Source of the DNA: Bacteroidaceae bacterium
Lineage (GTDB): Bacteria > Bacteroidota > Bacteroidia > Bacteroidales > Bacteroidaceae
NCBI GenBank assembly: GCA_017445925.1
Contig: JAFSRW010000084.1
Location: 1 to 64,000, forward strand
Direction: 5' to 3'
Length of the DNA stretch: 64,000 nucleotides
Shown here: in pieces, positions 20,866 to 50,429 of the stretch
Layout of the letters: every line of letters starts with the position of its first letter
Numbering within the stretch: the first letter of the stretch is position 1
Program-made: the position numbers and the translations under genes
Notes under the pieces: model-generated
What the model saw: only the letters and a program-made list of their open reading frames with translations
Databases searched by the model: none
What the model was told of the DNA's origin: nothing

Positions 20866-20896
20866 CTTGCGTGTTGACGTTTTTGTTGTAATTTTG
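20866..20896 (+). promoter_or_regulatory. Promoter of the acyl-ligase/acyltransferase gene
   Basis: CTTG (20866-20869), 19 bases, then TAATTTTG (20889-20896), an exact TAnnTTTG. Transcription would start near 20903, which rules out the TTG at 20867 as start codon and supports ATG 20930. Confidence 0.65.
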
Positions 20897-20929
20897 TCTT
20901 CTGTAAATATTAATCAGCTGGAAAATGCT

Positions 20930-23434
20930 ATGCAGAAAAGAGCAACCACAACCATTTTAGAGAAAACTGCCATTATAGCAGGGGAGCGTAATGTGTCATT
21001 CGCCCAAGCTTTACGGTATATCGACATGTTTGCTCAGCAAATCCCTTCTTCGGAACAGAAACGTATCATCGTCTTTAGCGAAAATAGCGAAGGATGGATA
21101 TATGCTTTTTTCGGCATTTGGCAGCAGGGCGGTGTGGCAGTCCCAGTAGATGCCAGTAGCACGGTCTCTGATTTCTCATATATCCTGCGCGACTGTTCTC
21201 CTCATGGTATATGGACTTCACAGCATAATGTATCTGTTGTGGAGCAGGCGCTTGCGGAGACGGGCATGGATATCCCCTTCTATATCATAGAGGAAAAGAT
21301 GAAGGAGCAGCCCGACGAAAACCGTCAGTTGCCCAAAACTCTTCCGTGGGCTGAGCTGGATGTTCCCTATAATCAGAAGGTTGCTCTTATCATCTATACC
21401 TCCGGTACAACGGGGAGTCCCAAGGGCGTTATGCTCAGCTTCCAGAATCTTATGGCAAACATCAAGGGCGTCTCGCAGGATGTGAGAATCTATACCAGCT
21501 ATAGGCGTACCATGATTCTCCTGCCTTTGCATCACGTATTGCCCCTTATGGGTAGTGTGGTGGCGCCGTTCTGGACGGGTGGCGGTGTGGCTATTTGCCA
21601 CAGCCTGACGGCTCCCGACCTCATGGACACACTCTGCAGAGGCAAGGTGGCTATTGTGATAGGTGTACCCCGACTGTGGCAGATGCTGTATGGTGGTATT
21701 AAGAGGAAGATAGACTCTAATGCCATTACGGCTTTCCTCTTCCGCATGTGTGCATTCTTCCGTAGCAGAACGCTTTCGCGGATTATCTTCAGTAGCATTC
21801 GTCGGAAGATGGGTGGACATATCGATTATTTTGTGAGCGGCGGTGCTGCTCTCAGCAAGGAGATAGGAGAGGGCTTGAAGACGCTGGGCTTGGATGTGCT
21901 TGAGGGCTATGGTATGACGGAGACGGCTCCCATCATCTGCTTTACACGTCCAACTGACATCCGTCCTGGTTGTGTGGGACTTCCTTTGCCTGGTATCGAA
22001 TGTAAACTGGTGAAGGGTGAACTGTGCGCCAAGGGCCCCAATGTAATGTTAGGCTATTACAACCGGCCTGAAGAGACGGCTGCCGTAATAGATAAGGACG
22101 GGTATATCCATACTGGTGATTTGGCATCCATCGACAAGAAAGGACGTGTTACCATCACTGGTAGAACCAAGGAGATAATTGTCCTTAGCAATGGAAAGAA
22201 CATAGAGCCCAGTGAGATAGAGTATAAGCTGGAGCAGTACGAACAATTCGTGAAAGAGGTGGCTGTTATGCAGGATAACGACCTCCTGCGTGCCATTGTT
22301 GTGCCACAAAGTACATGGGCTTCTCTGCTCAACGATACACAGGTGGAGGTAGCACTAAAACACGAAGTCATAGAACCTTATAACCGCTCTGTTGCCAATT
22401 ATAAGAAGGTGATGGCGCTGACGGTTTATCGAGGCGAACTTCCTAGAACCAAGTTGGATAAACTGCAGCGTTTCAAGTTGCAGGCTCTCCTGGAGGCCTG
22501 TCGTTCTTCACAGCCTGCCAGTAAAGAAGAACCAGAGCCCGACATGGAGGAGTATCGCATCATAAAGAACTATATTGAGCTGGAAAAGAAGGTTCCTGTA
22601 AAACCCTCTTCTCACGTAGAAACCGACTTAGCGATGGATTCGCTCGACAAAGTCGGGCTGCAAGGTTTTGTAGAGCATACCTTTGGACTCAGACTTATGG
22701 CTGAACAGATGGCTGCATTCCCCAACATAAAGGCAATGGCGGAGTATGTGGCATCACGTAAGACAAAGGTGGAGGTGGAAGAGGTAGACTGGCATAGTTT
22801 GCTCAACGAACAGGTTCCCAATCTCCATATTCCTCAGGCTTCATGTTTGTTCCCCTTTGTGAACAAGAGTCTGAAGTTGTTTTTCCGGATTTATAATTCA
22901 TTGCGTATCCACGGACGCATACAGATTCCTGCTAAAGGCCCCTATATCTTGGCCCCCAATCATCAGAGCTATGTAGATGCGCCCGTTGTGCTGAGCGGAC
23001 TTACGTGGAGGCAGATTCAGACTTGTTATTTCTATGCTACCGAGGAACATGTGAAGAGTAAGTTCCGCCGTGCTTTGGCCGACAAGAACAATACCATCAT
23101 CATGGAACAGGCGCACCTGAAGGAGAGCATACAGAAGTTGGCTCAGGTGCTGAAGAGCGGAAAGAATATTGTCATTTTCCCAGAAGGAAGTCGTACGCAC
23201 GATGGTGAACTGGGTGACTTCAAGCTTTCGTTCGCCATCTTAAGTAAAGAATTAAATATCCCCATTGTACCCGTCTGTATTAGAGGTGCTTATGATGCCC
23301 TACCAAGGCATCGCAAGTATATCTATCCTCGTCATATTGAGGTCCACTATTTGCCGCCGGTAATGCCTACGGCAGATGTTACCTACCAGCAATTGGCTGA
23401 TAAGGTAAAGCAGGCAATAGCAAGGGTGTTGTAA
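20930..23434 (+). CDS. Acyl-AMP ligase / acyl carrier / 1-acylglycerol-phosphate acyltransferase fusion
   Basis: This multidomain lipid enzyme has about 834 residues. The N-terminal domain is an adenylate-forming acyl ligase (IIYTSGTTGSPKGVMLS near residue 155; LEGYGMTETAPI; YIHTGDLASIDKKGRVTITG). A short carrier domain follows with the phosphopantetheine serine in LAMDSLDKVG (near residue 570). The C-terminal domain is a PlsC acyltransferase with LAPNHQSYVDAPV (NHx4D, near 678) and IFPEGSRTHDG (near 751). The layout recalls Aas of E. coli, but with the order ligase-ACP-acyltransferase. It probably activates free or exogenous fatty acids, loads them on its own carrier and acylates lysophospholipid (inference). 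There is no signal peptide. The stop lies 1 base before the convergent PurF-like gene. Confidence 0.88.
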   Translation: MQKRATTTILEKTAIIAGERNVSFAQALRYIDMFAQQIPSSEQKRIIVFSENSEGWIYAFFGIWQQGGVAVPVDASSTVSDFSYILRDCSPHGIWTSQHNVSVVEQALAETGMDIPFYIIEEKMKEQPDENRQLPKTLPWAELDVPYNQKVALIIYTSGTTGSPKGVMLSFQNLMANIKGVSQDVRIYTSYRRTMILLPLHHVLPLMGSVVAPFWTGGGVAICHSLTAPDLMDTLCRGKVAIVIGVPRLWQMLYGGIKRKIDSNAITAFLFRMCAFFRSRTLSRIIFSSIRRKMGGHIDYFVSGGAALSKEIGEGLKTLGLDVLEGYGMTETAPIICFTRPTDIRPGCVGLPLPGIECKLVKGELCAKGPNVMLGYYNRPEETAAVIDKDGYIHTGDLASIDKKGRVTITGRTKEIIVLSNGKNIEPSEIEYKLEQYEQFVKEVAVMQDNDLLRAIVVPQSTWASLLNDTQVEVALKHEVIEPYNRSVANYKKVMALTVYRGELPRTKLDKLQRFKLQALLEACRSSQPASKEEPEPDMEEYRIIKNYIELEKKVPVKPSSHVETDLAMDSLDKVGLQGFVEHTFGLRLMAEQMAAFPNIKAMAEYVASRKTKVEVEEVDWHSLLNEQVPNLHIPQASCLFPFVNKSLKLFFRIYNSLRIHGRIQIPAKGPYILAPNHQSYVDAPVVLSGLTWRQIQTCYFYATEEHVKSKFRRALADKNNTIIMEQAHLKESIQKLAQVLKSGKNIVIFPEGSRTHDGELGDFKLSFAILSKELNIPIVPVCIRGAYDALPRHRKYIYPRHIEVHYLPPVMPTADVTYQQLADKVKQAIARVL

Positions 23435-41018: not shown

Positions 41019-41037
41019 AATAACTTTAGTTATTTTT
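41019..41037 (+). terminator. Weak terminator after the glycosidase gene
   Basis: AATAAC (41019-41024) pairs with GTTATT (41029-41034) around a TTTA loop, followed by TTT. The stem is short and AT-rich. Confidence 0.45.
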
Positions 41038-41058: not shown

Positions 41059-41089
41059 GTTGATAATCCGATAAATTGTTGTACCTTTG
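41059..41089 (+). promoter_or_regulatory. Promoter of the fatty-acid-like biosynthesis operon
   Basis: GTTG (41059-41062), 19 bases, then TACCTTTG (41082-41089), an exact -7 box. Transcription would start near 41096, giving a leader of about 46 bases. No other strong promoter is seen before 50429. Confidence 0.75.
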
Positions 41090-41141: not shown

Positions 41142-42275
41142 ATGGGTGAAATTAGAGTTGTCAAAGTTGAAAATTCCAGGCAGATGAATGCTTTTGTTCA
41201 GTTGCCTGAGAGATTATATGCAGGCAACCAGTATTATGTCCCAGACCTGGATAGCGATATCCGCGACATGTTCAATCCTCAGAAAAATACTGCTCTTAAA
41301 TATGCTGACATACAGGCTTTTTTAGCCTACAAAGGAGATAAGGTAGTTGGCCGTATCGCCGGAATCATCAACAGAAATGCCAATGAACGCTGGAAGAAAA
41401 GTTGTGTACGCTTTGGACTTATTGAGTTCGAGGACGACATTGCTATTTCAGATGCACTATTGAAAGCTGTTGAACAGTGGGGCGCTGAACGCGGAATGAC
41501 CGAGATTCAAGGCCCAATGGGGATTATAGACTTCGATAAAGAAGGTATGCTGATGGAGGATTTCGACCTCATGGGCAGCATGATAGATATCTACAACCCA
41601 CCTTATTATCCCCAGCACATGGAGCGACTGGGTTATAAGAAGGAAGTAGACTGGTTACAGGTGCGAGTAGAAATACCCAAGGAGGTTCCTGCCAAATATG
41701 CCCGAGTTTCCAATTTGGCAAAGGAAATGTTTGGTCTGAAAGTTAGAAAGTTAAGTCGTAAGGAGATTCTGGGTGAACAGGGCCAGCGTGTATTTCGTTT
41801 GATGAACGAAGCCTATGCGCCCATCTTCGGATATAGCGATTTGACAGAAGAGATGGTTACCGACCTGATAAAGAAGTATATTCCCATCCTTGACCCCGAA
41901 CTCATCACAACGGTAGAGAACGAAAAGGGAGAGATGGTATGTGCCGCTGTAACAGCGGGAGCCCTTTCGCATACACTTCGCAAATCAAACGGCAAGTTGC
42001 TTCCTTTTGGCTGGGTACATTTCCTGAAGACGCTGCTCTTCAAAAACGAGGATACAGTTAATATGATGCTCATTGCTGTACGTCCCGATATGCAGGGCTT
42101 AGGTGTGAATGCGCTGATATTTGATGACCTTATTCCTATCTACAACCGCAAGGGTTATAAGTATGCTGAGACTGGTCCTCAGCTGGAGGATAACGTAAAG
42201 GAACTCTCGCAGTGGAAGCCTTTGAATCCCAAAATACAGAAACGTAGGAGATGTTGGATTAAAACAATAGAATAA
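41142..42275 (+). CDS. GNAT-fold N-acyltransferase-like protein
   Basis: This is a 377-residue cytosolic protein of the YghO-like group with GNAT features: a substrate-side half (VPDLDSDIRDMFNPQKN, FLAYKGDKVVGRIAGIIN) and an acyl-CoA-type motif near the C-terminus (MMLIAVRPDMQGLGVNALIF; the V-x-x-x-x-Q-G-x-G pattern). It opens the operon, 27 bases before a ketosynthase. Proteins of this size in Bacteroidetes include N-acyltransferases that use acyl-ACP, so it may attach the chain made by the operon to an amine (inference). Simple acetyltransferase activity is the alternative. Confidence 0.7.
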   Translation: MGEIRVVKVENSRQMNAFVQLPERLYAGNQYYVPDLDSDIRDMFNPQKNTALKYADIQAFLAYKGDKVVGRIAGIINRNANERWKKSCVRFGLIEFEDDIAISDALLKAVEQWGAERGMTEIQGPMGIIDFDKEGMLMEDFDLMGSMIDIYNPPYYPQHMERLGYKKEVDWLQVRVEIPKEVPAKYARVSNLAKEMFGLKVRKLSRKEILGEQGQRVFRLMNEAYAPIFGYSDLTEEMVTDLIKKYIPILDPELITTVENEKGEMVCAAVTAGALSHTLRKSNGKLLPFGWVHFLKTLLFKNEDTVNMMLIAVRPDMQGLGVNALIFDDLIPIYNRKGYKYAETGPQLEDNVKELSQWKPLNPKIQKRRRCWIKTIE

Positions 42276-42302
42276 CAATAATCAGAAGAATAAATTAGAA
42301 TT

Positions 42303-43526
42303 ATGAATAGAGTTGTAATAACAGGTATGGGCATATGGTCCTGTCTGGGACAGACATTGGACGATGTACGTGATGCACTGTACCAGGGAAAGAGTGGTAT
42401 CATCTTTAGCCAAGAAAGAAAGGACGCAGGATTCCGTTCCGCATTGTGCGCAGATGTGCCAGCTGTTGAAATTAAGAAACTTTTAGCACGCAACGTTCGC
42501 CAATTTATGCCAGAGGAAGCTCAGTATGCTTATGTAGCAACGCTTCAGGCTTTGGAAAACGCCAAGATAGATCAGGACTTTCTGGATGCTCATGAGGTAG
42601 GTATTATCTACGGCAACGACTCCGTTGCTGAGAGTACCATGATTGCATTGGACAAGTTCCGCGAGTTTAAGGATACTGCTGCCTGCGGTAGCGGTGCCAT
42701 CTTCCAGAGTATGAACAGTACCGTAACCATGAATTTGGCTTGTCTGTTCAAGTTACGTGGTATCAACCTGACTTCATCTGCCGCTTGCGCTTCCAGCTCT
42801 TTAGCTATTGGTAATGCCTATCTGCTTATCAAGGAAGGTCTGCAGGATTGTGTTATCTGCGGTGGTGCTCAAGAGGCTAATATGTACTGTGTTGCCAGCT
42901 TCGATGGTATTCAGGCATTCTCAACACGTGAGGATGAACCGACTAAGGCTTGTCGTCCTTTCGACCGCGACCGTGATGGTTTAGTGCCAGGTGGTGGTGC
43001 TGCAACCCTGATTCTGGAAAGCTACGAACATGCTGTTAAGCGTGGTGCACCCATCATTGCCGAGATAGTAGGGTGGGGTTTCAGCGGTAACGGTGACCAT
43101 ATTTCTACTCCCAATGTGGCTGGTCCTGCCCGTTCTTTGGAGTTAGCTCTCAAGAATGGCGGCATAGACCCACGTATGATAGGTTATGTAAATGCTCACG
43201 CTACCAGTACTCATGCTGGTGATGGTAGAGAGGCCATGGCCATTGCCCAGTGTTTTGGCGACTACCAAGTCCCCGTTACAAGTACTAAGAGCCAAACAGG
43301 ACATGAAATGTGGATGGCTGGTGCCAGCGAGTGTATCTATTCTGTACTGATGATGAAGAACGGCTTCATTGCCGGTAGCTTGAACTTCGAAAATCCTGAT
43401 GAGGAGACTGCCTGCGTGAATGTCATTCCTCAGACCATCGAGACGGGCTTCGATATGTTCCTCAGCAACAGTTTCGGTTTTGGCGGAACAAACAGTACAC
43501 TAATTGTAAAAGATTTCAAAGGATAA
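42303..43526 (+). CDS. Beta-ketoacyl-ACP synthase (FabF/KAS II-like)
   Basis: This is a chain-extending ketosynthase of 407 residues. The catalytic triad is C162 in SSAACASSSLAIG, H299 in VNAHATSTHAGD and H334 in TSTKSQTGHEMWMAGASE. The C-terminal NSFGFGGTNSTL motif is present. It differs from housekeeping FabF in the GHEMWMAG motif (usually GHLLGAAG), as seen in dedicated polyene or secondary-metabolite synthases. A partner chain-length factor is not present. It stands next to an ACP and two dehydratase-like genes. Confidence 0.9.
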   Translation: MNRVVITGMGIWSCLGQTLDDVRDALYQGKSGIIFSQERKDAGFRSALCADVPAVEIKKLLARNVRQFMPEEAQYAYVATLQALENAKIDQDFLDAHEVGIIYGNDSVAESTMIALDKFREFKDTAACGSGAIFQSMNSTVTMNLACLFKLRGINLTSSAACASSSLAIGNAYLLIKEGLQDCVICGGAQEANMYCVASFDGIQAFSTREDEPTKACRPFDRDRDGLVPGGGAATLILESYEHAVKRGAPIIAEIVGWGFSGNGDHISTPNVAGPARSLELALKNGGIDPRMIGYVNAHATSTHAGDGREAMAIAQCFGDYQVPVTSTKSQTGHEMWMAGASECIYSVLMMKNGFIAGSLNFENPDEETACVNVIPQTIETGFDMFLSNSFGFGGTNSTLIVKDFKG

Positions 43527-43581
43527 ACAAAAGAGAGAATAATTTTTTTTATTTCATTTTTACAAATAACTATTTAAGATC

Positions 43582-43824
43582 ATGACAAGAGAAGAAATCA
43601 TTGAGAAGACAATCGAGACTTTGACAGACGAGTTTGACGTAAACGAGGAAGAAATCGTAGAGGACGCTCCTATTTACCAGACCCTGCATCTCGACAGCCT
43701 GAGTCTTGTTGACCTGGTAGCTGTTGTACAGTACACCTTTAAGGTTAAGATTCCTGCAGAGGATCTGCCCAATGTAAAGACTTTTGGTAATCTTTACGAT
43801 TACATTGAGAGCCACATGGCTTAA
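43582..43824 (+). CDS. Acyl carrier protein
   Basis: This is an 80-residue acidic acyl carrier protein. The phosphopantetheine serine is S39 in TLHLDSLSLVDLV. It is distinct from primary AcpP (which has DSLDTVE), so it is probably dedicated to this operon. It lies 55 bases after the ketosynthase and 8 before a dehydratase. Confidence 0.93.
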   Translation: MTREEIIEKTIETLTDEFDVNEEEIVEDAPIYQTLHLDSLSLVDLVAVVQYTFKVKIPAEDLPNVKTFGNLYDYIESHMA

Positions 43825-43832
43825 TCTGACGC

Positions 43833-44249
43833 ATGACAGATATCAAAAAACTCATACCTCAGCGCTCGCCAATCATGATGGTTGACGAGTTGCTTGAGGT
43901 TCATGATGATGTCGCTCGTTGCAGTCTTACCATCAGGGAGGATAACTTCTTCCTCGAGCCAGACGGTGCTATAGCAGAACCGGGTGTAATAGAACATATT
44001 GCACAGTCGGCCTCTGCTTTTGCCGGTTATAGTGCTATACAAGCCGGCGCAACAGAACCGCCCGTTGGGTATATTGGCGAGGTGAAACGTTTCAGACTGA
44101 ACCGTAGGCCGCGTAAAGCCGAAACATTAGTTACTACCATTACAATGGGGCCCACCGTTGGTGGTGTTACCATTATTACAGGCGAGACAGTCTCTGGCGA
44201 GGAGACTATTGCTACTACTCAAATGAAGATTTATGTTGCTGGAGAATAA
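43833..44249 (+). CDS. Hotdog-fold 3-hydroxyacyl-ACP dehydratase (ApeP-like)
   Basis: This is a 138-residue hotdog protein (IKKLIPQRSPIMMVDELLEV; AEPGVIEHIAQSASAFAGYS). The LIPQR/H-P.MMVD start and the E-x-I/M-A-Q helix recall ApeP and related dehydratases of aryl-polyene-type clusters. It lacks the HFPG motif of FabZ. It overlaps the next gene by 17 bases, so translation is probably coupled. Confidence 0.8.
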   Translation: MTDIKKLIPQRSPIMMVDELLEVHDDVARCSLTIREDNFFLEPDGAIAEPGVIEHIAQSASAFAGYSAIQAGATEPPVGYIGEVKRFRLNRRPRKAETLVTTITMGPTVGGVTIITGETVSGEETIATTQMKIYVAGE

Positions 44250-44598
44250 ATATTACAAGGTTTTACGCGCGCGCAAGGAAGGCGAAGGAAGAGCAGTTTA
44301 CCATGTGGCTATTCTGCCTAACTGTAACGTGTATGAGGGACATTTCCCAGGTAATCCTGTCTGTCCTGGAGTTTGTAATATCCAGACTATAAAGGAATGT
44401 GCTTCATTGTTAGTTGGTAAAGAGTTGCGTATCTTGTCCATCAAACAATGCTTGCTCACAGCCATTGCAACTCCAACGGTTTGTCCCGAGGTAGATGTAG
44501 AGGTTGAGGTAAGTGAATCAGACGGAAAGTATTCTATTGTTGCCACCATCTCCGACGAGAAACGGCAGTATATGGCCTTCAAAGGTGAAGGTGTATGA
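44233..44598 (+). CDS. Hotdog-fold dehydratase (FabZ/ApeI-like)
   Basis: This is a 121-residue hotdog protein with the FabZ-type motif EGHFPGNPVCPGVCNIQTIK (His of HFPG as catalytic residue). It has one domain, as ApeI-type dehydratases do. Two different dehydratases in one operon suggest more than one dehydration geometry or substrate. It overlaps the following oxidoreductase gene by 14 bases. Confidence 0.82.
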   Translation: MLLENKYYKVLRARKEGEGRAVYHVAILPNCNVYEGHFPGNPVCPGVCNIQTIKECASLLVGKELRILSIKQCLLTAIATPTVCPEVDVEVEVSESDGKYSIVATISDEKRQYMAFKGEGV

Positions 44599-45967
44599 CG
44601 TTATAATCATAGGAAGCGGTCTGGGTGGTTTGGTTTGTGCCAATCTGCTCAGCAAGAAAGGAATGAGAGTGCTCGTTCTGGAGCGCCAGCATCAGCCTGG
44701 AGGCTGTTTGCAAAGCTACCGACGAGGCGGTATGATGTACGATACAGGTCTTCACTATGTAGGTGGTTTGGCAGAAGGACAGCCTTTGCATGATATATTT
44801 AAGGAGTTGGACCTCTTGTCACTTCCATGGCAACGTTTGGATGCTGACGGTTTTGACCGCATAATGATTGCCGACCGCGAGTTCCGCTTTGCTGAAGGAT
44901 ACGACAATTTCCTTGAGACGCTGGCCAAAGATTTCCCTGAGGAGCGTGAAAGCTTGCAGCGTTACATTCAGTTGATGCAATGTACCGACGAGGTTTGGAT
45001 GCAGCAGACAAATGCCTATGACTATCTCCGCAGCATCATCCGTAATCCTTTACTACTGAGTGTGTTAAGCGGTGCTTGTCTAAAAATGGAGCTAAAGCGC
45101 GATACCCTTCCTCTCTTTACTTACGTTCATGGGAATGCGCCCTTTATACAAAGTAGTTGGCGACTGAAAGGTGACGGTAACATGATTGTCCGTAAACTCA
45201 CAGACAACTTTACCCGTCTGGGTGGAAAACTAATCTGTGATGCTGAGGTAGAAGAATTAGTAGAAGAACAGGGTGCCATCCGCAAAGCTGTTTGCAAGAA
45301 CGGTCAGGCGTATCAGGCACGTTATTTCATCAGCGACGCTCATCCTTCCGTAACTCTCTCTCTAGTAAAAGAAAGTCAGTTGATTAAGAAGGTGTATCGT
45401 CGCAGAATTGACAATTTGGAAAATACAAATGGAATGTTTACTGCTCAGTTGTTGCTGAAGCCGGGTATGGTTCCATATTTTAACTATAACGAGTTCTTGT
45501 ATGATGGACTCGAAGCGTGGGACGGACGCGGTTATATGGTAAGTTGCCGTGTTCCTGAAGACGGCTCTACTTATGCCCGTCAGATAGATATTCTCACGCC
45601 AATGAATATAAGCGAATGCGCAGCGTGGACGGATAGCTTGCCCATGCGTCGTGGTGAGGAATACTTGCAGTTCAAGGCACAGAAGGCACAGAAGTGCGTA
45701 GCTGTAGCAGAACGATTCCTGCCTAATCTGCATGACTATGTGCTGGAGATACATACCAGTACTCCGCTTACGTATCGCGATTACAACCTGTCGCCCGACG
45801 GCAGTGCTTATGGAATACGAAAGGATGCAGCGGCTCCGCTCCTAACAGTTCTCTCGCCCCGCACCAGTATTCCCAATTTATTACTAACCGGTCAGAGCCT
45901 TATGTTGCATGGACTTCACGGCGTTACAATGACCGCAATGTATACAACAAAAGAAATTACAGAATAA
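44585..45967 (+). CDS. FAD-dependent phytoene-desaturase/RetSat-like oxidoreductase
   Basis: This is a flavoprotein of about 460 residues. The GTG at 44585 is chosen as start because it gives MKVYDVIIIGSGLGGLVCAN, a proper Rossmann FAD loop, whereas the first ATG downstream would destroy it. Further features are ERQHQPGGCLQSYRRGG, an HYVGG motif and the C-terminal FAD segment IPNLLLTGQSLMLHGLHGVT. The family (phytoene desaturase, carotenoid isomerase, retinol saturase) acts on polyene chains. In this operon it may desaturate or saturate the ACP-borne chain (inference). The last codons lie 15 bases before the DUF5686 gene. Confidence 0.85.
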   Translation: MKVYDVIIIGSGLGGLVCANLLSKKGMRVLVLERQHQPGGCLQSYRRGGMMYDTGLHYVGGLAEGQPLHDIFKELDLLSLPWQRLDADGFDRIMIADREFRFAEGYDNFLETLAKDFPEERESLQRYIQLMQCTDEVWMQQTNAYDYLRSIIRNPLLLSVLSGACLKMELKRDTLPLFTYVHGNAPFIQSSWRLKGDGNMIVRKLTDNFTRLGGKLICDAEVEELVEEQGAIRKAVCKNGQAYQARYFISDAHPSVTLSLVKESQLIKKVYRRRIDNLENTNGMFTAQLLLKPGMVPYFNYNEFLYDGLEAWDGRGYMVSCRVPEDGSTYARQIDILTPMNISECAAWTDSLPMRRGEEYLQFKAQKAQKCVAVAERFLPNLHDYVLEIHTSTPLTYRDYNLSPDGSAYGIRKDAAAPLLTVLSPRTSIPNLLLTGQSLMLHGLHGVTMTAMYTTKEITE

Positions 45968-45982
45968 AAGATTGAAGGATAT

Positions 45983-48625
45983 ATGAAACGTCAGATAATA
46001 CTCTTTATGCTTCTTTTAGGATTGGCTGTCCCATCCTATGCTCAGATGGTTTATGGAAGGATCTTTGATTCATTAGATGACGAACCACTTGAAGGAGCAC
46101 AGGTTTGGTATAAAGACCGCCCTACTGGGAAGATAGTTGCAAACGAAAACGGTTATTACAAAATACGTTTTCGTCCTGGCACTTTGGTGTTTCACTATTT
46201 TGGCTATAAGGATGTAGAAGTAGTTGTTAAGAAAGCACGCTCACTTGACATAAAACTTTCTATGAACGCCAGTGATATGGGGACCGTTACAGTCAAGGCA
46301 GAGAAAAAGAAGTATGTCCGCAAGGGTAATCCTGCCGTAGAACTGATGCAGAAGGTGATAGATGCCCGTAAGAGTGCCGATATCCACGATGCCGAATATG
46401 CCAGTTTCGATAGATACGTTAGCACCACAATGGCTATTAACGATGTGGATACTACCACGCTTGACGATGAGAATTATAAGAAGGCGAATCTCTCTGCCGA
46501 GTATGCCGAATATTGTCCCGCAACGGGTAAGATGATTCTTCCTATCAGCTTCGAGGAACGTATTACCAAGGAGTATTATCGTAAGTCTGGCGACCGACGC
46601 AAGAGCATTGTCTTGGGCGAAAATAAAGAGAGTTTGCTTGACCTCTTGTCGGCAACAGACTTTGTAGAAAGCAAGATAAAAGACAATCTGGTGGATGTTG
46701 ATATCTATAAAGACCAGACCGTTATTTTCCAACATAACTTCATCAGTCCTATCGGAGGTGCAGCTGCTCTTCGTTTTTACCACTATGCCATTGCCGATAC
46801 GGTAGATTGCGACGGCGACTCATGTATCATCGTTAACTTTCAGCCCGCCAATAAGCAGGATTTTGGTTGGAATGGTGACCTCTACGTCATGAACGACAGC
46901 ACCTACCGCATTAAGCGAGCCCGTATGGGTATGCCCATGGGCAACAGTGTGAACTTTGTCCGACACCTTTCGTTGGATCAGGAGTTCCAGAGTCTGCCTG
47001 GCGGACAGCAGTTCTGCACCAGTAACCGTATGATTATGCAGATGGTGCTTACCGATAAGATTAACAAGTTGCACGTTGATCATTTTGCACGTTACACCAA
47101 TATCAGCAACGAGCCTTTCCCAGATGAATATGTCAGTTTCGCTGGCGACGAGAAGGTTGAGAAGGGAGCCAAACATCGCGACAAAGTCTTCTGGGCTCAA
47201 TATCGCCCCGATACGCTCTCGCACGGTCAGCAGCATATTGCCGAGCTGAAACGTCGGTTCACAGACCAGCCTATTGTGCGTGGCGTGCTGTATGCTGCTA
47301 AGGTATTCCTCGACAACTACCTCGAGACCAGCGTCGACCCCAACCGGCCAAGTAAGGTGGACATCGGTCCCTTCTTCTCTACTTTCGGTAGTAACTGGGT
47401 AGAAGGTTTCCGTCTGCGTTTGGGTGCTCAGACCACTGGAGCTTTCAACAAGCACTGGTTCCTCGGCGGATGGATAAAATACGGATTCAAGGACCATAAG
47501 GTAAAAGGTGAGACCCGGATTGCCTATTCGTTCAACGAGAAGGAGAAAGACCTCATAGCTTATCCCCGTAAGGATATTTCCTTCAGCTATACCCGCGATA
47601 TCCAGAGTCCCTCAGATAAGTTCCTGCAATACGATAAGGATAATACCTTTATGTCTTTTGCCTGGCACAAGACCCGCTTGCAAAGTTACTTCGAGCGTTA
47701 TCGTGTTGAGGCCGTCTTTGAGTATGAGTATGGCCTGGCCTTGAATGCGCGTTTCAACCGCGAGTGGAACACAGGAGCCGGCGACCTCTATTTCCTTACC
47801 AACAAGGAATGGTATAATATTGAAAATTCCATCCAGAACGGCCGTCTAATGCCCACAGATGTGGAATCCAATACCGTCACTTATACCGAGTTCAGCTTTG
47901 GTGCTTCCTATCAGCCCGGTCTTAAGGTGCTGAATACACGTACCAAGCGTTACCTTTCTAACCTCGAGGCTCCCAAGATTGCCTTTCAGCACACCGTAGG
48001 TATTAAGGGCTTCTTAGGTGGCGATTATAACTATAACATGACCGAGTTCATGTTCAGCAAACGTTTTTGGCTGAACTCATGGGGTAGTATCGACGGCAAC
48101 ATCCACGCTTCATTCCAGTGGAACAGGGTTCCATTCCCTCTGCTCGTAATTCCAGAGGCTAACCTCAGTTACATCCGCAGTCGTAACACCTTTAACCTTG
48201 TGGGCAATATGGAGTTCCTGCATGACCGTGCTGTAACCACCATGTGGCGCTGGGACCTCAACGGAAAGCTCTTCAACCGCATTCCTCTGTTCAGGAAACT
48301 CAAGTGGCGCGAGTCTTTGGCGCTTAATTGCATGTGGGGATACCTCACCGATAAGAACAACCCCTTGATTGAAGCCAATCGTAACGATGATTTCCTCTAC
48401 CGTTTCCCCGGCGAGTGGAAGCATCACTATGAGGGTTCTGTTCTGCGCAACCAATACGTAAACTACACCGAGCCAATGAACAGCTGGAAGCCATATATCG
48501 AGGCAGCCGTAGGTATTCACAACATCCTTAAATTCCTCTCCTTCGAGTACACCCATCGTTTCACCTATATCAAAGACGACACCCAGAAGTGGGGCTTCCG
48601 CTTCTACTTCGAAGCAAGCTTCTAA
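45983..48625 (+). CDS. DUF5686 outer-membrane protein with carboxypeptidase-like regulatory domain
   Basis: This is an 880-residue exported protein. A signal peptide (MKRQIILFMLLLGLAVPSYA) is followed by a CarboxypepD_reg-like domain (about 22-100: VYGRIFDSLDDEPLEGAQVW; TLVFHYFGYKDVEVVV) and a long DUF5686 region that ends like an outer-membrane beta-barrel (FTYIKDDTQKWGFRFYFEASF). It has no TonB plug. Its place inside a lipid-biosynthesis operon suggests that it moves or displays the product at the outer membrane (inference). Confidence 0.85.
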   Translation: MKRQIILFMLLLGLAVPSYAQMVYGRIFDSLDDEPLEGAQVWYKDRPTGKIVANENGYYKIRFRPGTLVFHYFGYKDVEVVVKKARSLDIKLSMNASDMGTVTVKAEKKKYVRKGNPAVELMQKVIDARKSADIHDAEYASFDRYVSTTMAINDVDTTTLDDENYKKANLSAEYAEYCPATGKMILPISFEERITKEYYRKSGDRRKSIVLGENKESLLDLLSATDFVESKIKDNLVDVDIYKDQTVIFQHNFISPIGGAAALRFYHYAIADTVDCDGDSCIIVNFQPANKQDFGWNGDLYVMNDSTYRIKRARMGMPMGNSVNFVRHLSLDQEFQSLPGGQQFCTSNRMIMQMVLTDKINKLHVDHFARYTNISNEPFPDEYVSFAGDEKVEKGAKHRDKVFWAQYRPDTLSHGQQHIAELKRRFTDQPIVRGVLYAAKVFLDNYLETSVDPNRPSKVDIGPFFSTFGSNWVEGFRLRLGAQTTGAFNKHWFLGGWIKYGFKDHKVKGETRIAYSFNEKEKDLIAYPRKDISFSYTRDIQSPSDKFLQYDKDNTFMSFAWHKTRLQSYFERYRVEAVFEYEYGLALNARFNREWNTGAGDLYFLTNKEWYNIENSIQNGRLMPTDVESNTVTYTEFSFGASYQPGLKVLNTRTKRYLSNLEAPKIAFQHTVGIKGFLGGDYNYNMTEFMFSKRFWLNSWGSIDGNIHASFQWNRVPFPLLVIPEANLSYIRSRNTFNLVGNMEFLHDRAVTTMWRWDLNGKLFNRIPLFRKLKWRESLALNCMWGYLTDKNNPLIEANRNDDFLYRFPGEWKHHYEGSVLRNQYVNYTEPMNSWKPYIEAAVGIHNILKFLSFEYTHRFTYIKDDTQKWGFRFYFEASF

Positions 48626-48628
48626 ATA

Positions 48629-48734
48629 AATGAAGAGTGAAGAATGAGATTTAAAAAAACCTAAAATAAAACTTGTGTGCCCGACAATTCTGTCATCGGG
48701 ATAAAGTAAACAATAAACGGTAAACAGTAAACAA
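48629..48734. repeat. Spacer with simple repeats and a small hairpin
   Basis: AATGAAGAGTGAAGAATGAG (48629-48648) is of the same type as the repeat in the CotH gene at 25057. CCCGA and TCGGG pair around an 11-base loop near 48679-48699, and TAAAC units repeat between 48707 and 48733 just before fabG. Confidence 0.55.
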
Positions 48735-48740
48735 AAAAAT

Positions 48741-49475
48741 ATGAAGTACGCATTAGTAACAGGAGCAAGTCGCGGTTTGGGTCGCGCCATTGCTGTCCGC
48801 TTAGCCCAGATGGGTTATAATATTCTTATCAATTACGCTGGTAATACCGCTGCAGCCGAGGAGACGCTGCGCCTCGTTCGCGAGGCAGGTACCGATGGTG
48901 AGTTGTGGTGCTTCGATGTGGCTGACCGTGAAAAGGCAACTGCTACTATTCAGGCTTGGCAAGAGGCTCATCAAGACAATGATGAGTACATTGAGGTCTG
49001 CGTTAACAATGCCGGCATTCGACGTGATGGTGTTATGGCCCTCATGCCTTTCGAGGACTACACTCGCGTTATAGATATCACCCTGCAGGGCTTCTTTAAC
49101 GTTACCCAGCCCCTGCTGCCCGCTATGCAGTTCCACAAGTTTGGTCGTATCATCAATATGGCCAGCGTAAGCGGTATAAAGGGTTTGCCCGGTCAGACCA
49201 ACTACTCAGCTGCCAAGGGTGGAATCATTGCAGCCACCAAGGCTTTGGCTCAGGAAGTTGCCAAGAAGAACGTCACTGTTAATGCCCTGGCTCCTGGCTT
49301 TATTAAGACCGATATGGTAGAGGGCTTAGACGAATCCACACTCAAGAAGACCATTCCTGCTGGTCGTTTCGGCCAACCCGAAGAGGTTGCCGAAGCCGTA
49401 GCCTTCCTGGTATCTCCCATGGCAGGATATGTTACGGGTAACGTTATCTCCATTAACGGAGGACTTTATACTTGA
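48741..49475 (+). CDS. fabG: 3-oxoacyl-ACP reductase (FabG-like SDR)
   Basis: This is a short-chain dehydrogenase of 244 residues that reduces 3-oxoacyl-ACP with NADPH. It shows TGASRGLGRAIA for cofactor binding, NNAGIRRDG, and the catalytic S142, Y155 and K159 in MASVSGIKGLPGQTNYSAAK. The C-terminus MAGYVTGNVISINGGLYT is typical. In this operon it supplies the ketoreduction step, and it resembles ApeQ. A second housekeeping fabG presumably exists elsewhere. Confidence 0.92.
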   Translation: MKYALVTGASRGLGRAIAVRLAQMGYNILINYAGNTAAAEETLRLVREAGTDGELWCFDVADREKATATIQAWQEAHQDNDEYIEVCVNNAGIRRDGVMALMPFEDYTRVIDITLQGFFNVTQPLLPAMQFHKFGRIINMASVSGIKGLPGQTNYSAAKGGIIAATKALAQEVAKKNVTVNALAPGFIKTDMVEGLDESTLKKTIPAGRFGQPEEVAEAVAFLVSPMAGYVTGNVISINGGLYT

Positions 49476-49530
49476 CAAGGGTTAAAGGTAAAAAGGTTAA
49501 AAAGTTGCAAATGCTCATTAACTTAAAAAC

Positions 49531-50013
49531 ATGAAAAGGGGATTAATATTTTTCATTCTTTCATTTTTCATTCTTTCATATTCTTGTGCTGCAGAAAGGC
49601 TGTTTGTTTTCGAGCGCAGCACCAACAAGAACTATATCTGCTACGATATAAATCTTAAGGATGGAAAGCTGGACCTCAAGAACCCTGTGCATGCCTATTG
49701 GATAAGGGCCGAAGAGGGTGGGGAGAAGAAGGAGCTCTCTTACCTGCAGTTCACCTTTGCCTTCGGCTATAAGGTCGATAGTAAGAAGGACAACGAGGTT
49801 ACCATTCACCTCACTCCCTACAAGAACCTGCCCATACGAATCTGCAAGCGCGCCGGTAAGTGGATAGCCCTTGTCACCATGGAGGGGCAAGAGATGGTGG
49901 TTACAAAGTTCTTTGCACAGATGAAGGGCGATACACTTACCTGTCTGTACGTAGATGTAACGGGCGTTTCCAACGGCAAGACCGTGACCAAGCGCATCAA
50001 TAATAAGAAATGA
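49531..50013 (+). CDS. DUF4833 exported protein
   Basis: This is a 160-residue protein with an N-terminal signal (MKRGLIFFILSFFILSYSCA) and a DUF4833 domain (RLFVFERSTNKNYICYDINL; DLKNPVHAYWIRAEEGGEKK). The signal may be of lipoprotein or ordinary type. Its hydrophobic core FFILSFFILS is encoded by a 15-base tandem repeat. DUF4833 proteins recur in such operons but have no known activity. The stop overlaps the thioesterase start by 4 bases (ATGA). Confidence 0.82.
   Translation: MKRGLIFFILSFFILSYSCAAERLFVFERSTNKNYICYDINLKDGKLDLKNPVHAYWIRAEEGGEKKELSYLQFTFAFGYKVDSKKDNEVTIHLTPYKNLPIRICKRAGKWIALVTMEGQEMVVTKFFAQMKGDTLTCLYVDVTGVSNGKTVTKRINNKK
49551..49579 (+). repeat. 15-base tandem repeat encoding the signal peptide core
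   Basis: TTTCATTCTTTCAT occurs at 49551-49564 and again at 49566-49579. It encodes FFILS twice within the DUF4833 signal peptide. Confidence 0.8.
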
Positions 50014-50429
50014 AGAAAGAATTAACTGATATTTGCCAGATTCGCGTTAAGTTTAGTGAGATGGATGCCATGTTGCGCGTATGGCACGGAAACTACGTCA
50101 AGTATTTCGAGGACGGCCGTGAATCTTTCGGTCGTCATTATCCTGGCATAGGTTACGAGGTTATGCTTGATGCCAACATTCCTGCTCCAGTATACGATGT
50201 GCATGTGCGCCATTTAGCCCCCATGGGTATGAATGATGTAGCCGAGATACACACCACCTACGTCCGCAAACCTGGTGCCCGTTTGGATTTCAAATACCAG
50301 ATATTTCGTCAGTCCGATGGTATCCTCTGCTGCGAAGGCACCACCACCCAGCTTTTTATAGATCCACAAGGACAACTCATGATAGAAGAACCCCAGTATT
50401 TCACTGATTGGAAGAAGAAATACCTCTGA
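50010..50429 (+). CDS. Hotdog thioesterase (4-hydroxybenzoyl-CoA thioesterase family)
   Basis: This is a 139-residue hotdog thioesterase (QIRVKFSEMDAMLRVWHGNY, then VKYFEDGRESFGRHYPGIGY). The catalytic Asp position of the 4HBT family lies in EMDAM. It is the last gene of the operon and overlaps DUF4833 by 4 bases. It probably releases the finished acyl chain from ACP or CoA, or edits it. Confidence 0.85.
   Translation: MKKELTDICQIRVKFSEMDAMLRVWHGNYVKYFEDGRESFGRHYPGIGYEVMLDANIPAPVYDVHVRHLAPMGMNDVAEIHTTYVRKPGARLDFKYQIFRQSDGILCCEGTTTQLFIDPQGQLMIEEPQYFTDWKKKYL

What the first reader, a model, noticed from the sequence alone, without database searches (positions are those of the whole stretch)
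41142..50429. Dedicated type II fatty-acid/polyene-like biosynthetic operon of unknown product
Ten co-oriented genes behind one clear promoter encode a GNAT protein, a KS (C162/H299/H334), an ACP (S39), two different dehydratases, a phytoene-desaturase/RetSat-like flavoprotein, DUF5686, FabG, DUF4833 and a thioesterase. The enzyme set recalls aryl polyene pathways, but the aryl starter enzymes (ammonia-lyase, aryl-CoA ligase), the second KS and glycolipid-transfer genes of those clusters are not seen. An unusual acyl chain that is exported or attached by the GNAT protein is a reasonable model.
Basis: partly seen in the sequence, partly recalled or inferred. Interest (0 to 1): 0.78.

Follow-up and report, generated by a model that had tools for sequence, protein, structure and literature searches.

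The report
Acyl-chain operon with ceramide-synthase-like acyltransferase
A gut Bacteroidales genome carries a self-contained set of genes that probably builds an unusual unsaturated fatty chain and joins it to an amine-bearing lipid, using enzymes related both to yellow aryl-polyene pigment makers and to the bacterial enzyme that makes ceramides.

Summary
The ten-gene operon (41142-50429) is real. It is not primary FAS II: FabF and AcpP lie on another contig. Its KS, KR and paired dehydratases are relatives of aryl-polyene (APE)/flexirubin ApeR, FlxB/ApeQ and ApeP/ApeI. The GNAT protein belongs to the bacterial ceramide synthase (bCerS/YghO) family. GNAT directly before KS recurs in 35 of 38 named loci with KS at least 74% identical, ACP in 38 and a CrtI/RetSat-like flavoprotein in 35, with no aryl ligase, ammonia-lyase or APE-type KS/CLF found on that strand in the flanks held. 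Eight of eight operon-bearing genomes without flexirubin FlxJ hold only two KS genes. In more distant relatives a PlsC-type acyltransferase fills the GNAT's slot in 24 of 42. Complication: this genome also has a flexirubin-like cluster on contig C34 in which no FlxB, FlxC-type KS, ACP or thioesterase was found, so enzymes may be shared. Most likely product: an N-(poly)enoyl amino/sphingo-type lipid sent to the outer membrane. Product chemistry is untested. New variant of a known kind.

The parts
41082..41089 (+). Bacteroidetes-type -7 promoter element TACCTTTG upstream of the operon
   Evidence: sequence, motif scan; consensus recalled; another TAnnTTTG at 41031
41142..42275 (+). GNAT protein of the bacterial ceramide synthase (bCerS/YghO) family; probable N-acyltransferase
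   Evidence: tblastn to E. coli YghO 25.5% over 99%, E 9e-26; hhalign to five homologues, four of them near an alpha-oxoamine synthase, prob 100, E 3.5e-50; their neighbours
42303..43526 (+). FabB/ApeR-type ketosynthase, C162 H299 H334, no chain-length-factor partner in the operon
43582..43824 (+). acyl carrier protein (S39)
43833..44249 (+). DH1, ApeP-like dehydratase subunit (keeps the catalytic-type Glu, lacks the His)
44233..44598 (+). DH2, ApeI-like dehydratase subunit (keeps the GHFP His; Gln at the usual Glu position in the window)
44591..45967 (+). CrtI/CrtD/RetSat-type flavoprotein; start at 44591 assumed (ORF open from GTG 44513)
45983..48625 (+). DUF5686 protein with CarboxypepD_reg-like domain; outer-membrane/export role inferred
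48741..49475 (+). FlxB-type ketoreductase (NF053542, 375 bits, cut-off 340)
49531..50013 (+). DUF4833 protein, co-occurs with DUF5686 in 4 of 38 named relatives
50010..50429 (+). 4HBT thioesterase, ApeK-like

Best explanation
The operon is a stand-alone acyl-lipid pathway. The FabB/ApeR-like KS extends a primer on the operon's ACP; the FlxB KR and the two dehydratase subunits turn each extension into an enoyl unit with no classical enoyl reductase in the set, so a (poly)unsaturated chain builds up; the CrtI/RetSat-like flavoprotein isomerises, saturates or desaturates it; the thioesterase edits. The bCerS-family N-acyltransferase then moves the chain from the ACP (or CoA) to an amine on a lipid acceptor, most likely a sphingoid-type long-chain base. 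DUF5686/DUF4833 (in many relatives MMPL plus LolA) take the lipid to the outer membrane. Shown: gene content, conserved order, family memberships, and independence from other KS genes in 8 genomes. Inferred: chain chemistry, acceptor, direction of transport.
For: GNAT directly upstream of KS in 35 of 38 named loci with KS >=74% identity; ACP 38 of 38, flavoprotein 35 of 38; APE-type KS/CLF, AMP-ligase, ammonia-lyase, FlxJ 0 of 38 on the KS strand within the flanks held. Exactly 2 KS genes in 8 of 8 operon genomes lacking FlxJ. GNAT = bCerS/YghO family; homologues sit near an SPT-like alpha-oxoamine synthase, ACP, epimerase and fatty acyl-AMP ligase in Klebsiella and Rahnella plasmids, synthase+ACP in Sphingomonas, synthase in Acidisoma: 4 of 10 neighbourhoods opened. 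CC_1154 of Caulobacter is reported required for dihydroceramide, with E. coli BL21 yghO as its counterpart (PMC9386255 and PMC11324152, passages). In 42 more distant KS relatives a PlsC-type acyltransferase occupies the same upstream slot in 24 and the GNAT in 0. DH1/DH2 resemble ApeP/ApeI, described as a heterodimer with one active site (PMC8041823 passages).
Against: DH and KR are not constant: in the 36 untruncated named loci DH1 was not found in 11 and FlxB not in 14; spacing leaves no room for a DH in the four checked (L121, L130, L138, L144). Most such genomes have an extra APE-type KS set that might supply them, but L129 and L130 lack DH1, and L130 and L156 lack FlxB in the operon, with no such set detected. 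DH2 keeps Glu in 4 of 10 copies, so a strictly composite active site is not shown. No GNAT was found upstream in L136, L142 (PlsC-type instead) and L152 (little upstream sequence). The GNATs are only 24-26% identical to the Klebsiella one, while closer homologues (38-40%) occur in Vescimonas (neighbours not opened) and a Chloroflexota plasmid without lipid neighbours. No SPT lies near the operon. G038 and G124 have an Acetyltransf_5 GNAT and a PlsC-type gene upstream, hinting at an amino-acid lipid instead.
Confidence: 0.5

Rival explanations
1. Same chain factory, but the acceptor is an amino acid or aminolipid (glycine/ornithine-lipid type), not a sphingoid base.
For: An Acetyltransf_5 GNAT and a PlsC-type gene (GlsB/GlsA-like; labels recalled) directly precede the operon in G038 and G124; PlsC-type acyltransferase replaces the GNAT in 24 of 42 distant loci; a CDP-alcohol phosphatidyltransferase-like gene is near 5 of 38 named loci.
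Against: The operon GNAT does not match Acetyltransf_5 but the bCerS type; the GlsB-like gene was found beside 0 of 38 named loci on the KS strand.
Confidence: 0.25
2. In this genome the operon mainly completes a flexirubin/aryl-polyene pathway split over two loci: it supplies KR, FlxC-type KS, ACP and TE to the C34 cluster.
For: C34 has FlxJ (593 bits >560), LolA2 (181>125), two long KS proteins, AMP ligase, GT2-PlsC, MMPL; the only FlxB and only FlxC-type KS found in the genome are in the window and no ACP or TE was found in the first 20 kb of C34. FlxB is single-copy in 34 of 38 group-A genomes, and in G000 and G038 the one copy is in the GNAT operon. Operon without FlxB goes with an extra KS set: 12 of 14 versus 6 of 22, Fisher p=0.0016, kinship not corrected.
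Against: The window KS and FlxB group with GNAT-operon orthologues (KS clade 98/97; FlxB with G038, G124 95/92 in a poorly resolved tree); 8 of 8 FlxJ-less relatives keep the operon with no second KS set; G118 has both clusters with a FlxB each; no ammonia-lyase found in G000; MAG only 83.7% complete.
Confidence: 0.15
3. The operon makes a saturated or mono-unsaturated special fatty acid, the RetSat-like flavoprotein serving as the enoyl/double-bond reductase.
For: The flavoprotein is found in 35 of 38 loci, DH1 in 26 and FlxB in 22; RetSat-type enzymes can saturate double bonds (recalled).
Against: Several FlxJ-type clusters, the described flexirubin products being polyenes, also carry distant homologues of the flavoprotein (about 29-35%; one 123-aa fragment 49%).
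Confidence: 0.2
4. It is ordinary primary FAS II.
For: Enzyme types overlap with FAS II.
Against: FabF and AcpP lie together on C79; operon-type GNAT (>=55% identity) occurs in only 10 of 150 other family genomes.
Confidence: 0.02

Closest known systems
Aryl polyene (APE) gene clusters, e.g. E. coli CFT073 ape genes
   Same: KR (ApeQ 48%), stand-alone KS (ApeR 35%, ahead of ApeO), DH pair (ApeP 27%, ApeI 25%), TE (ApeK 28%) (Ape letters assigned by me from gene order and recall); MMPL and LolA each in 23 of 38 relatives
   Different: No KS-CLF (ApeO/ApeC), aryl ligase ApeH, methyltransferase ApeB, or ApeJ/ApeD glycolipid genes; a bCerS-type N-acyltransferase and a CrtI-like flavoprotein instead
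Flexirubin clusters of Bacteroidota (Chitinophaga pinensis flx; FlxJ-type clusters of this family)
   Same: FlxB passes its NCBIfam cut-off; KS is sister to the KS of two ammonia-lyase-bearing clusters and then to other FlxC-type KS (FlxC label by position); distant flavoprotein homologues
   Different: No tyrosine ammonia-lyase, 4CL, FlxJ or KS/CLF at the locus
Bacterial ceramide synthase bCerS (Caulobacter CC_1154 / E. coli BL21 yghO)
   Same: Operon GNAT is homologous over its full length
   Different: Sits in an acyl-chain operon instead of near SPT; 24-26% identity; a second family member exists on C41
Glycine-lipid (GlsB/GlsA) pathway (recalled)
   Same: N-acylation by a GNAT; GlsB/GlsA-like genes adjacent in two relatives
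   Different: Different GNAT family; not adjacent in the window

Membership tests
Aryl polyene / flexirubin gene cluster | KR of FlxB/ApeQ type | tested here: met
   NF053542 375 bits > 340; 48% to ApeQ
Aryl polyene / flexirubin gene cluster | KS-CLF pair for elongation | tested here: not met
   single KS in operon; 0 of 38 related loci have F4/F5-type KS on the KS strand in the flanks; 8 of 8 FlxJ-less operon genomes have only FabF + operon KS. In G000 itself two such KS are on C34
Aryl polyene / flexirubin gene cluster | aryl starter supply (ammonia-lyase and/or aryl-CoA ligase) | tested here: not met
   PF00221 not found in G000 nor in 11 of 12 handles, two of which appear to be one genome; no AMP ligase in operon or in 38 loci; one AMP ligase on C34 in this genome
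Aryl polyene / flexirubin gene cluster | heterodimeric dehydratase with one composite active site | tested here: inconclusive
   DH1 has Glu and no His in all 11 copies aligned; DH2 has the His in all 10, with Glu in 4, Gln in 5, Gly in 1; heterodimer not shown
Aryl polyene / flexirubin gene cluster | aryl polyene product | not testable with these tools
   needs chemistry
Bacterial ceramide synthase (bCerS/YghO) | full-length sequence homology | tested here: met
   hhalign prob 100, 370 columns, E 3.5e-50; YghO hit E 9e-26
Bacterial ceramide synthase (bCerS/YghO) | neighbourhood or co-occurrence with SPT | tested here: inconclusive
   no SPT beside the operon; an SPT-like gene is in the genome on C95; PMC11334938 passages say the genes are not clustered in Bacteroidota
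Bacterial ceramide synthase (bCerS/YghO) | N-acylates a long-chain base | not testable with these tools
   biochemistry needed
Primary FAS II | main KS/ACP set, near-universal in the family | tested here: not met

The most novel reading that the evidence does not exclude
A new class of bacterial sphingolipid-like membrane lipid whose N-acyl group is a purpose-built conjugated polyene, made by an aryl-polyene-derived synthase coupled in one operon to a ceramide-synthase paralogue and widespread in gut and rumen Bacteroidaceae.
Probability: 0.3. Interest if true: 0.82.

Novelty: new variant of a known kind. Interest (0 to 1): 0.6.

Why it matters
Gut Bacteroidota lipids act on the host, and ceramide diversity is usually ascribed to the long-chain base and head group (both recalled). 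A dedicated synthase for the N-acyl chain would be a new route to lipid diversity and would link two lipid worlds, APE pigments and sphingolipids. It also gives a clear system for asking how a polyene-type synthase works with one KS and no chain-length factor. Clusters like this could be called aryl polyene by automatic finders although no aryl starter gene is present (inference; no such finder was run).

Tried and rejected
Primary FAS II (rejected). Simple loss of the aryl half to another contig (partly true here, rejected as general). ApeR aromatic clamp (Tyr135/Phe202) as sign of an aryl substrate: W2 has F134 and F200, but the alignment around Tyr135 is shifted in E. coli ApeR, so I make no claim. 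Solved-structure searches gave no credible match for the GNAT (profile hits E>=0.49), DUF4833 (E 0.67) or DUF5686 (E 0.068, 47 residues). Rfam: no hits in the window at gathering scores. DUF5686/DUF4833: no paper in the held library. First ORF-based tallies limited or dropped some genes, so the tblastn tally is used except for the GlsB-like gene, which only tallied; one search counts the KS strand only and short divergent DH/ACP may still be missed. Strain An322 was first my preferred test host, but its GNAT row lists an internal stop (as G140), its DUF5686 lies in two ORFs and no TE was found, so it may be partly decayed.
Full report
What is there. The ten ORFs at 41142-50429 are all present on the + strand, overlapping or within about 60 bases of each other except for 115 bases before FlxB. 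Pfam and NCBIfam name a KS (top NCBIfam match FabB-type PRK07967, 362 bits, below its cut-off of 630), an ACP, a weak ApeP-like DH, a FabA-like DH, a CrtI/CrtD-type flavoprotein, DUF5686, an SDR that passes the cut-off for flexirubin FlxB (375 vs 340 bits), DUF4833 and a 4HBT thioesterase. The GNAT protein has no Pfam match at 1e-3.

Not primary FAS. The window is G000:C44:1-64000 of a 3.3 Mb, 83.7% complete genome. KS matches lie on C79 (FabF beside AcpP), on C44 (the operon) and on C34 (C79 and C34 read). Aromatic ammonia-lyase was not found in it.

A second cluster in the same genome. C34 carries FlxJ methyltransferase (593 bits, cut-off 560), LolA2_flexi (181, cut-off 125), a LpxL-type acyltransferase, two DH-like proteins, two long KS proteins, GT2-PlsC, MMPL and an AMP ligase, and by reading alone an SMR-type protein, an alpha/beta hydrolase and an SDR. 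Among ORFs of 60 aa or more in the first 20 kb no FlxB, FlxC-type KS, ACP or TE was detected; genome-wide, the window holds the only FlxB found and the only FlxC-type KS.

The operon can nonetheless stand alone. Among 150 other family genomes, a GNAT with at least 55% identity to the window's occurs in 10 (the G140 copy is listed with an internal stop). Around it are KS, ACP, DH1, flavoprotein and FlxB in 10 of 10, DH2 in 9 and TE in 8. FlxJ above cut-off occurs in 22 of 151 genomes, FlxB in 36 of 151. Eight of the ten lack FlxJ, and in these 8 of 8 the only KS genes are FabF and the operon KS. Ammonia-lyase was found in 1 of 12 handles searched, two handles appearing to be the same genome. 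The KS tree puts the operon KS in one clade (98/97), next to single-KS operons of two other genera, then to the KS of two ammonia-lyase-bearing clusters, and apart from the other FlxJ-cluster KS (ammonia-lyase). In the GNAT tree the operon clade has 92/95. The FlxB tree is poorly resolved but joins the window to the operon FlxB of two same-genus genomes (95/92).

Named relatives. Thirty-eight have KS of 74% identity or more; their titles read Prevotella, Prevotellaceae, Bacteroides, Bacteroidaceae or Bacteroidales, many from rumen or gut samples, including P. lacticifex JCM 34664 and Bacteroides sp. An322. By tblastn on the KS strand in these 38: GNAT directly upstream 35, ACP 38, flavoprotein 35, DH1 26, FlxB 22, DH2 12, TE 12, MMPL 23, LolA 23, DUF5686 22, DUF4833 4, CDP-alcohol phosphatidyltransferase-like 5; APE-type KS/CLF, AMP ligase, ammonia-lyase and FlxJ 0. 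Some loci are cut by contig ends; of 29 with full flanks, GNAT 27, ACP 29, flavoprotein 28, MMPL or DUF5686 26. Without GNAT: L136, L142 (PlsC-type gene instead), L152. So the constant core is N-acyltransferase, KS, ACP and flavoprotein, usually with an export part; KR, DH and TE are often absent, and spacing leaves no room for a DH in the four checked, L130, L138, L144 and L121. In the other 42 loci (KS 64-70%) a PlsC-type acyltransferase sits upstream in 24 and the GNAT in 0. An exchangeable acyltransferase in a fixed slot is the best evidence that it uses the chain made by the operon.

Sharing of reductase and dehydratase. FlxB copy number in the 38 genomes is 0 in 3, 1 in 34, 2 in 1. Taking three or more KS matches as a sign of an APE-type cluster (18 of 38), and leaving out two truncated loci, operons without FlxB are in such genomes in 12 of 14 cases, with FlxB in 6 of 22 (Fisher p 0.0016; DH1: 9 of 11 without versus 9 of 25 with, p 0.027; kinship not corrected). 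Exceptions: L130 and L156 lack FlxB, L129 and L130 lack DH1, with no such set; L130's genome shows only one KS, so it is probably incomplete. This suggests the operon needs a KR and DH, from its own genes or from another pathway.

Enzyme relationships. Against the E. coli CFT073 APE cluster: KR-ApeQ 48%, KS-ApeR 35% (above FabF 34% and ApeO 33%), DH1-ApeP 27%, DH2-ApeI 25%, TE-ApeK 28%. DH1 keeps the Glu and lacks the His in 11 of 11 operon copies; DH2 keeps the GHF(P) His in 10 of 10 while its Glu position is Glu in 4, Gln in 5 (window included), Gly in 1. PMC8041823 (passages) describes ApeI/ApeP as heterodimeric dehydratases with a single active site. PMC8358021 (abstract, one section, passages) describes ApeR as a homodimeric FabB-like KS complementary to ApeO-ApeC; PMC8253772 passages report earlier in vitro work tying ApeR to initiation.

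The GNAT. tblastn against plasmid records found 44 records; the match to a gene annotated yghO in E. coli is 25.5% over 99%, E 9e-26. Ten of these neighbourhoods were opened: Klebsiella and Rahnella have the GNAT near an alpha-oxoamine-synthase-like aminotransferase, ACP, epimerase and fatty acyl-AMP ligase; Sphingomonas near such a synthase and ACP; Acidisoma near such a synthase; Roseomonas and Diaphorobacter have lipid genes; Shinella an acyl-phospholipid acyltransferase gene; the Chloroflexota record and Bacteroides finegoldii have no lipid neighbours; Ensifer has no annotation. That the synthases are SPT is inferred from this set and from PMC9386255, whose passages show the same five genes clustered in E. 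coli BL21 with yghO as counterpart of CC_1154; PMC11324152 passages report CC_1154 as required for dihydroceramide. Profile comparison of operon GNATs with five of these homologues: probability 100, E 3.5e-50, 370 columns. In G000 the Klebsiella protein matches only two places, the window GNAT (98.9 bits) and C41 (91.6 bits). A family match is present in 147 of 151 family genomes. An SPT-like gene is on C95 (38% to the Klebsiella synthase, against 30% for the one on C14).

Reading. The window operon most likely makes an N-acylated membrane lipid with a purpose-built unsaturated chain and sends it outward. What is shown is gene content, order, families and distribution. The chain, the acceptor and the transport are inferred.

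Novelty. Listings of the held library for aryl polyene with sphingolipid, Bacteroides and gene cluster (1 paper), at least three of polyene, ceramide, Bacteroidetes, acyl carrier protein (12 of 47 listed), and at least three of arylpolyene, Prevotella, Bacteroidaceae, resorcinol (12 of 17 listed) showed no title or start of abstract describing such an operon; most subscription papers are not held. PMC9248904 (passages) counts flexirubin clusters across the phylum; the passages seen do not mention this type.

Noticed in passing
L006:2573-17660 (G000 contig C34): Flexirubin-like cluster with FlxJ, LolA2, two long KS, AMP ligase, GT2-PlsC and MMPL, in a genome with no ammonia-lyase found and with no FlxB, FlxC-type KS, ACP or TE detected in this stretch; starter unit unknown.
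   Followed up: partly
L113 (NZ_CP106839.1) and L199 (CP042359.1): A Klebsiella michiganensis plasmid typed conjugative and a Rahnella plasmid carry what looks like the five-gene dihydroceramide cluster (SPT-like, ACP, epimerase, acyl-AMP ligase, bCerS), so sphingolipid synthesis may be mobile in enterobacteria.
   Followed up: no
L070:4925-7137 and L072 (G038, G124): An Acetyltransf_5 GNAT and a PlsC-type acyltransferase gene (GlsB/GlsA-like, label recalled) directly upstream of the operon in two same-genus genomes.
   Followed up: partly
L068 and L069 downstream of the operon: CDP-alcohol phosphatidyltransferase, and in L069 also an LPG-synthase-TM gene, between the TE and DUF5686: possible head-group or flipping enzymes.
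   Followed up: partly
L078 (G125:C7): GNAT 49% identical to the operon GNAT and branching next to its clade, but with no KS operon next to it.
   Followed up: no
L074 / L135 (Bacteroides sp. An322): Operon possibly partly decayed: GNAT row lists an internal stop, DUF5686 lies in two ORFs, no TE found.
   Followed up: no
window 20867-23434: 855-aa ORF that reads as AMP-ligase, ACP-like and PlsC-like regions in one protein (sequence reading only, no family search).
   Followed up: no
L102, L094, L103: Related single-KS operons without GNAT detected in two other genera; L102 has a PlsC-type gene upstream plus MMPL and LolA; L094 is cut by the contig end before the KS.
   Followed up: yes
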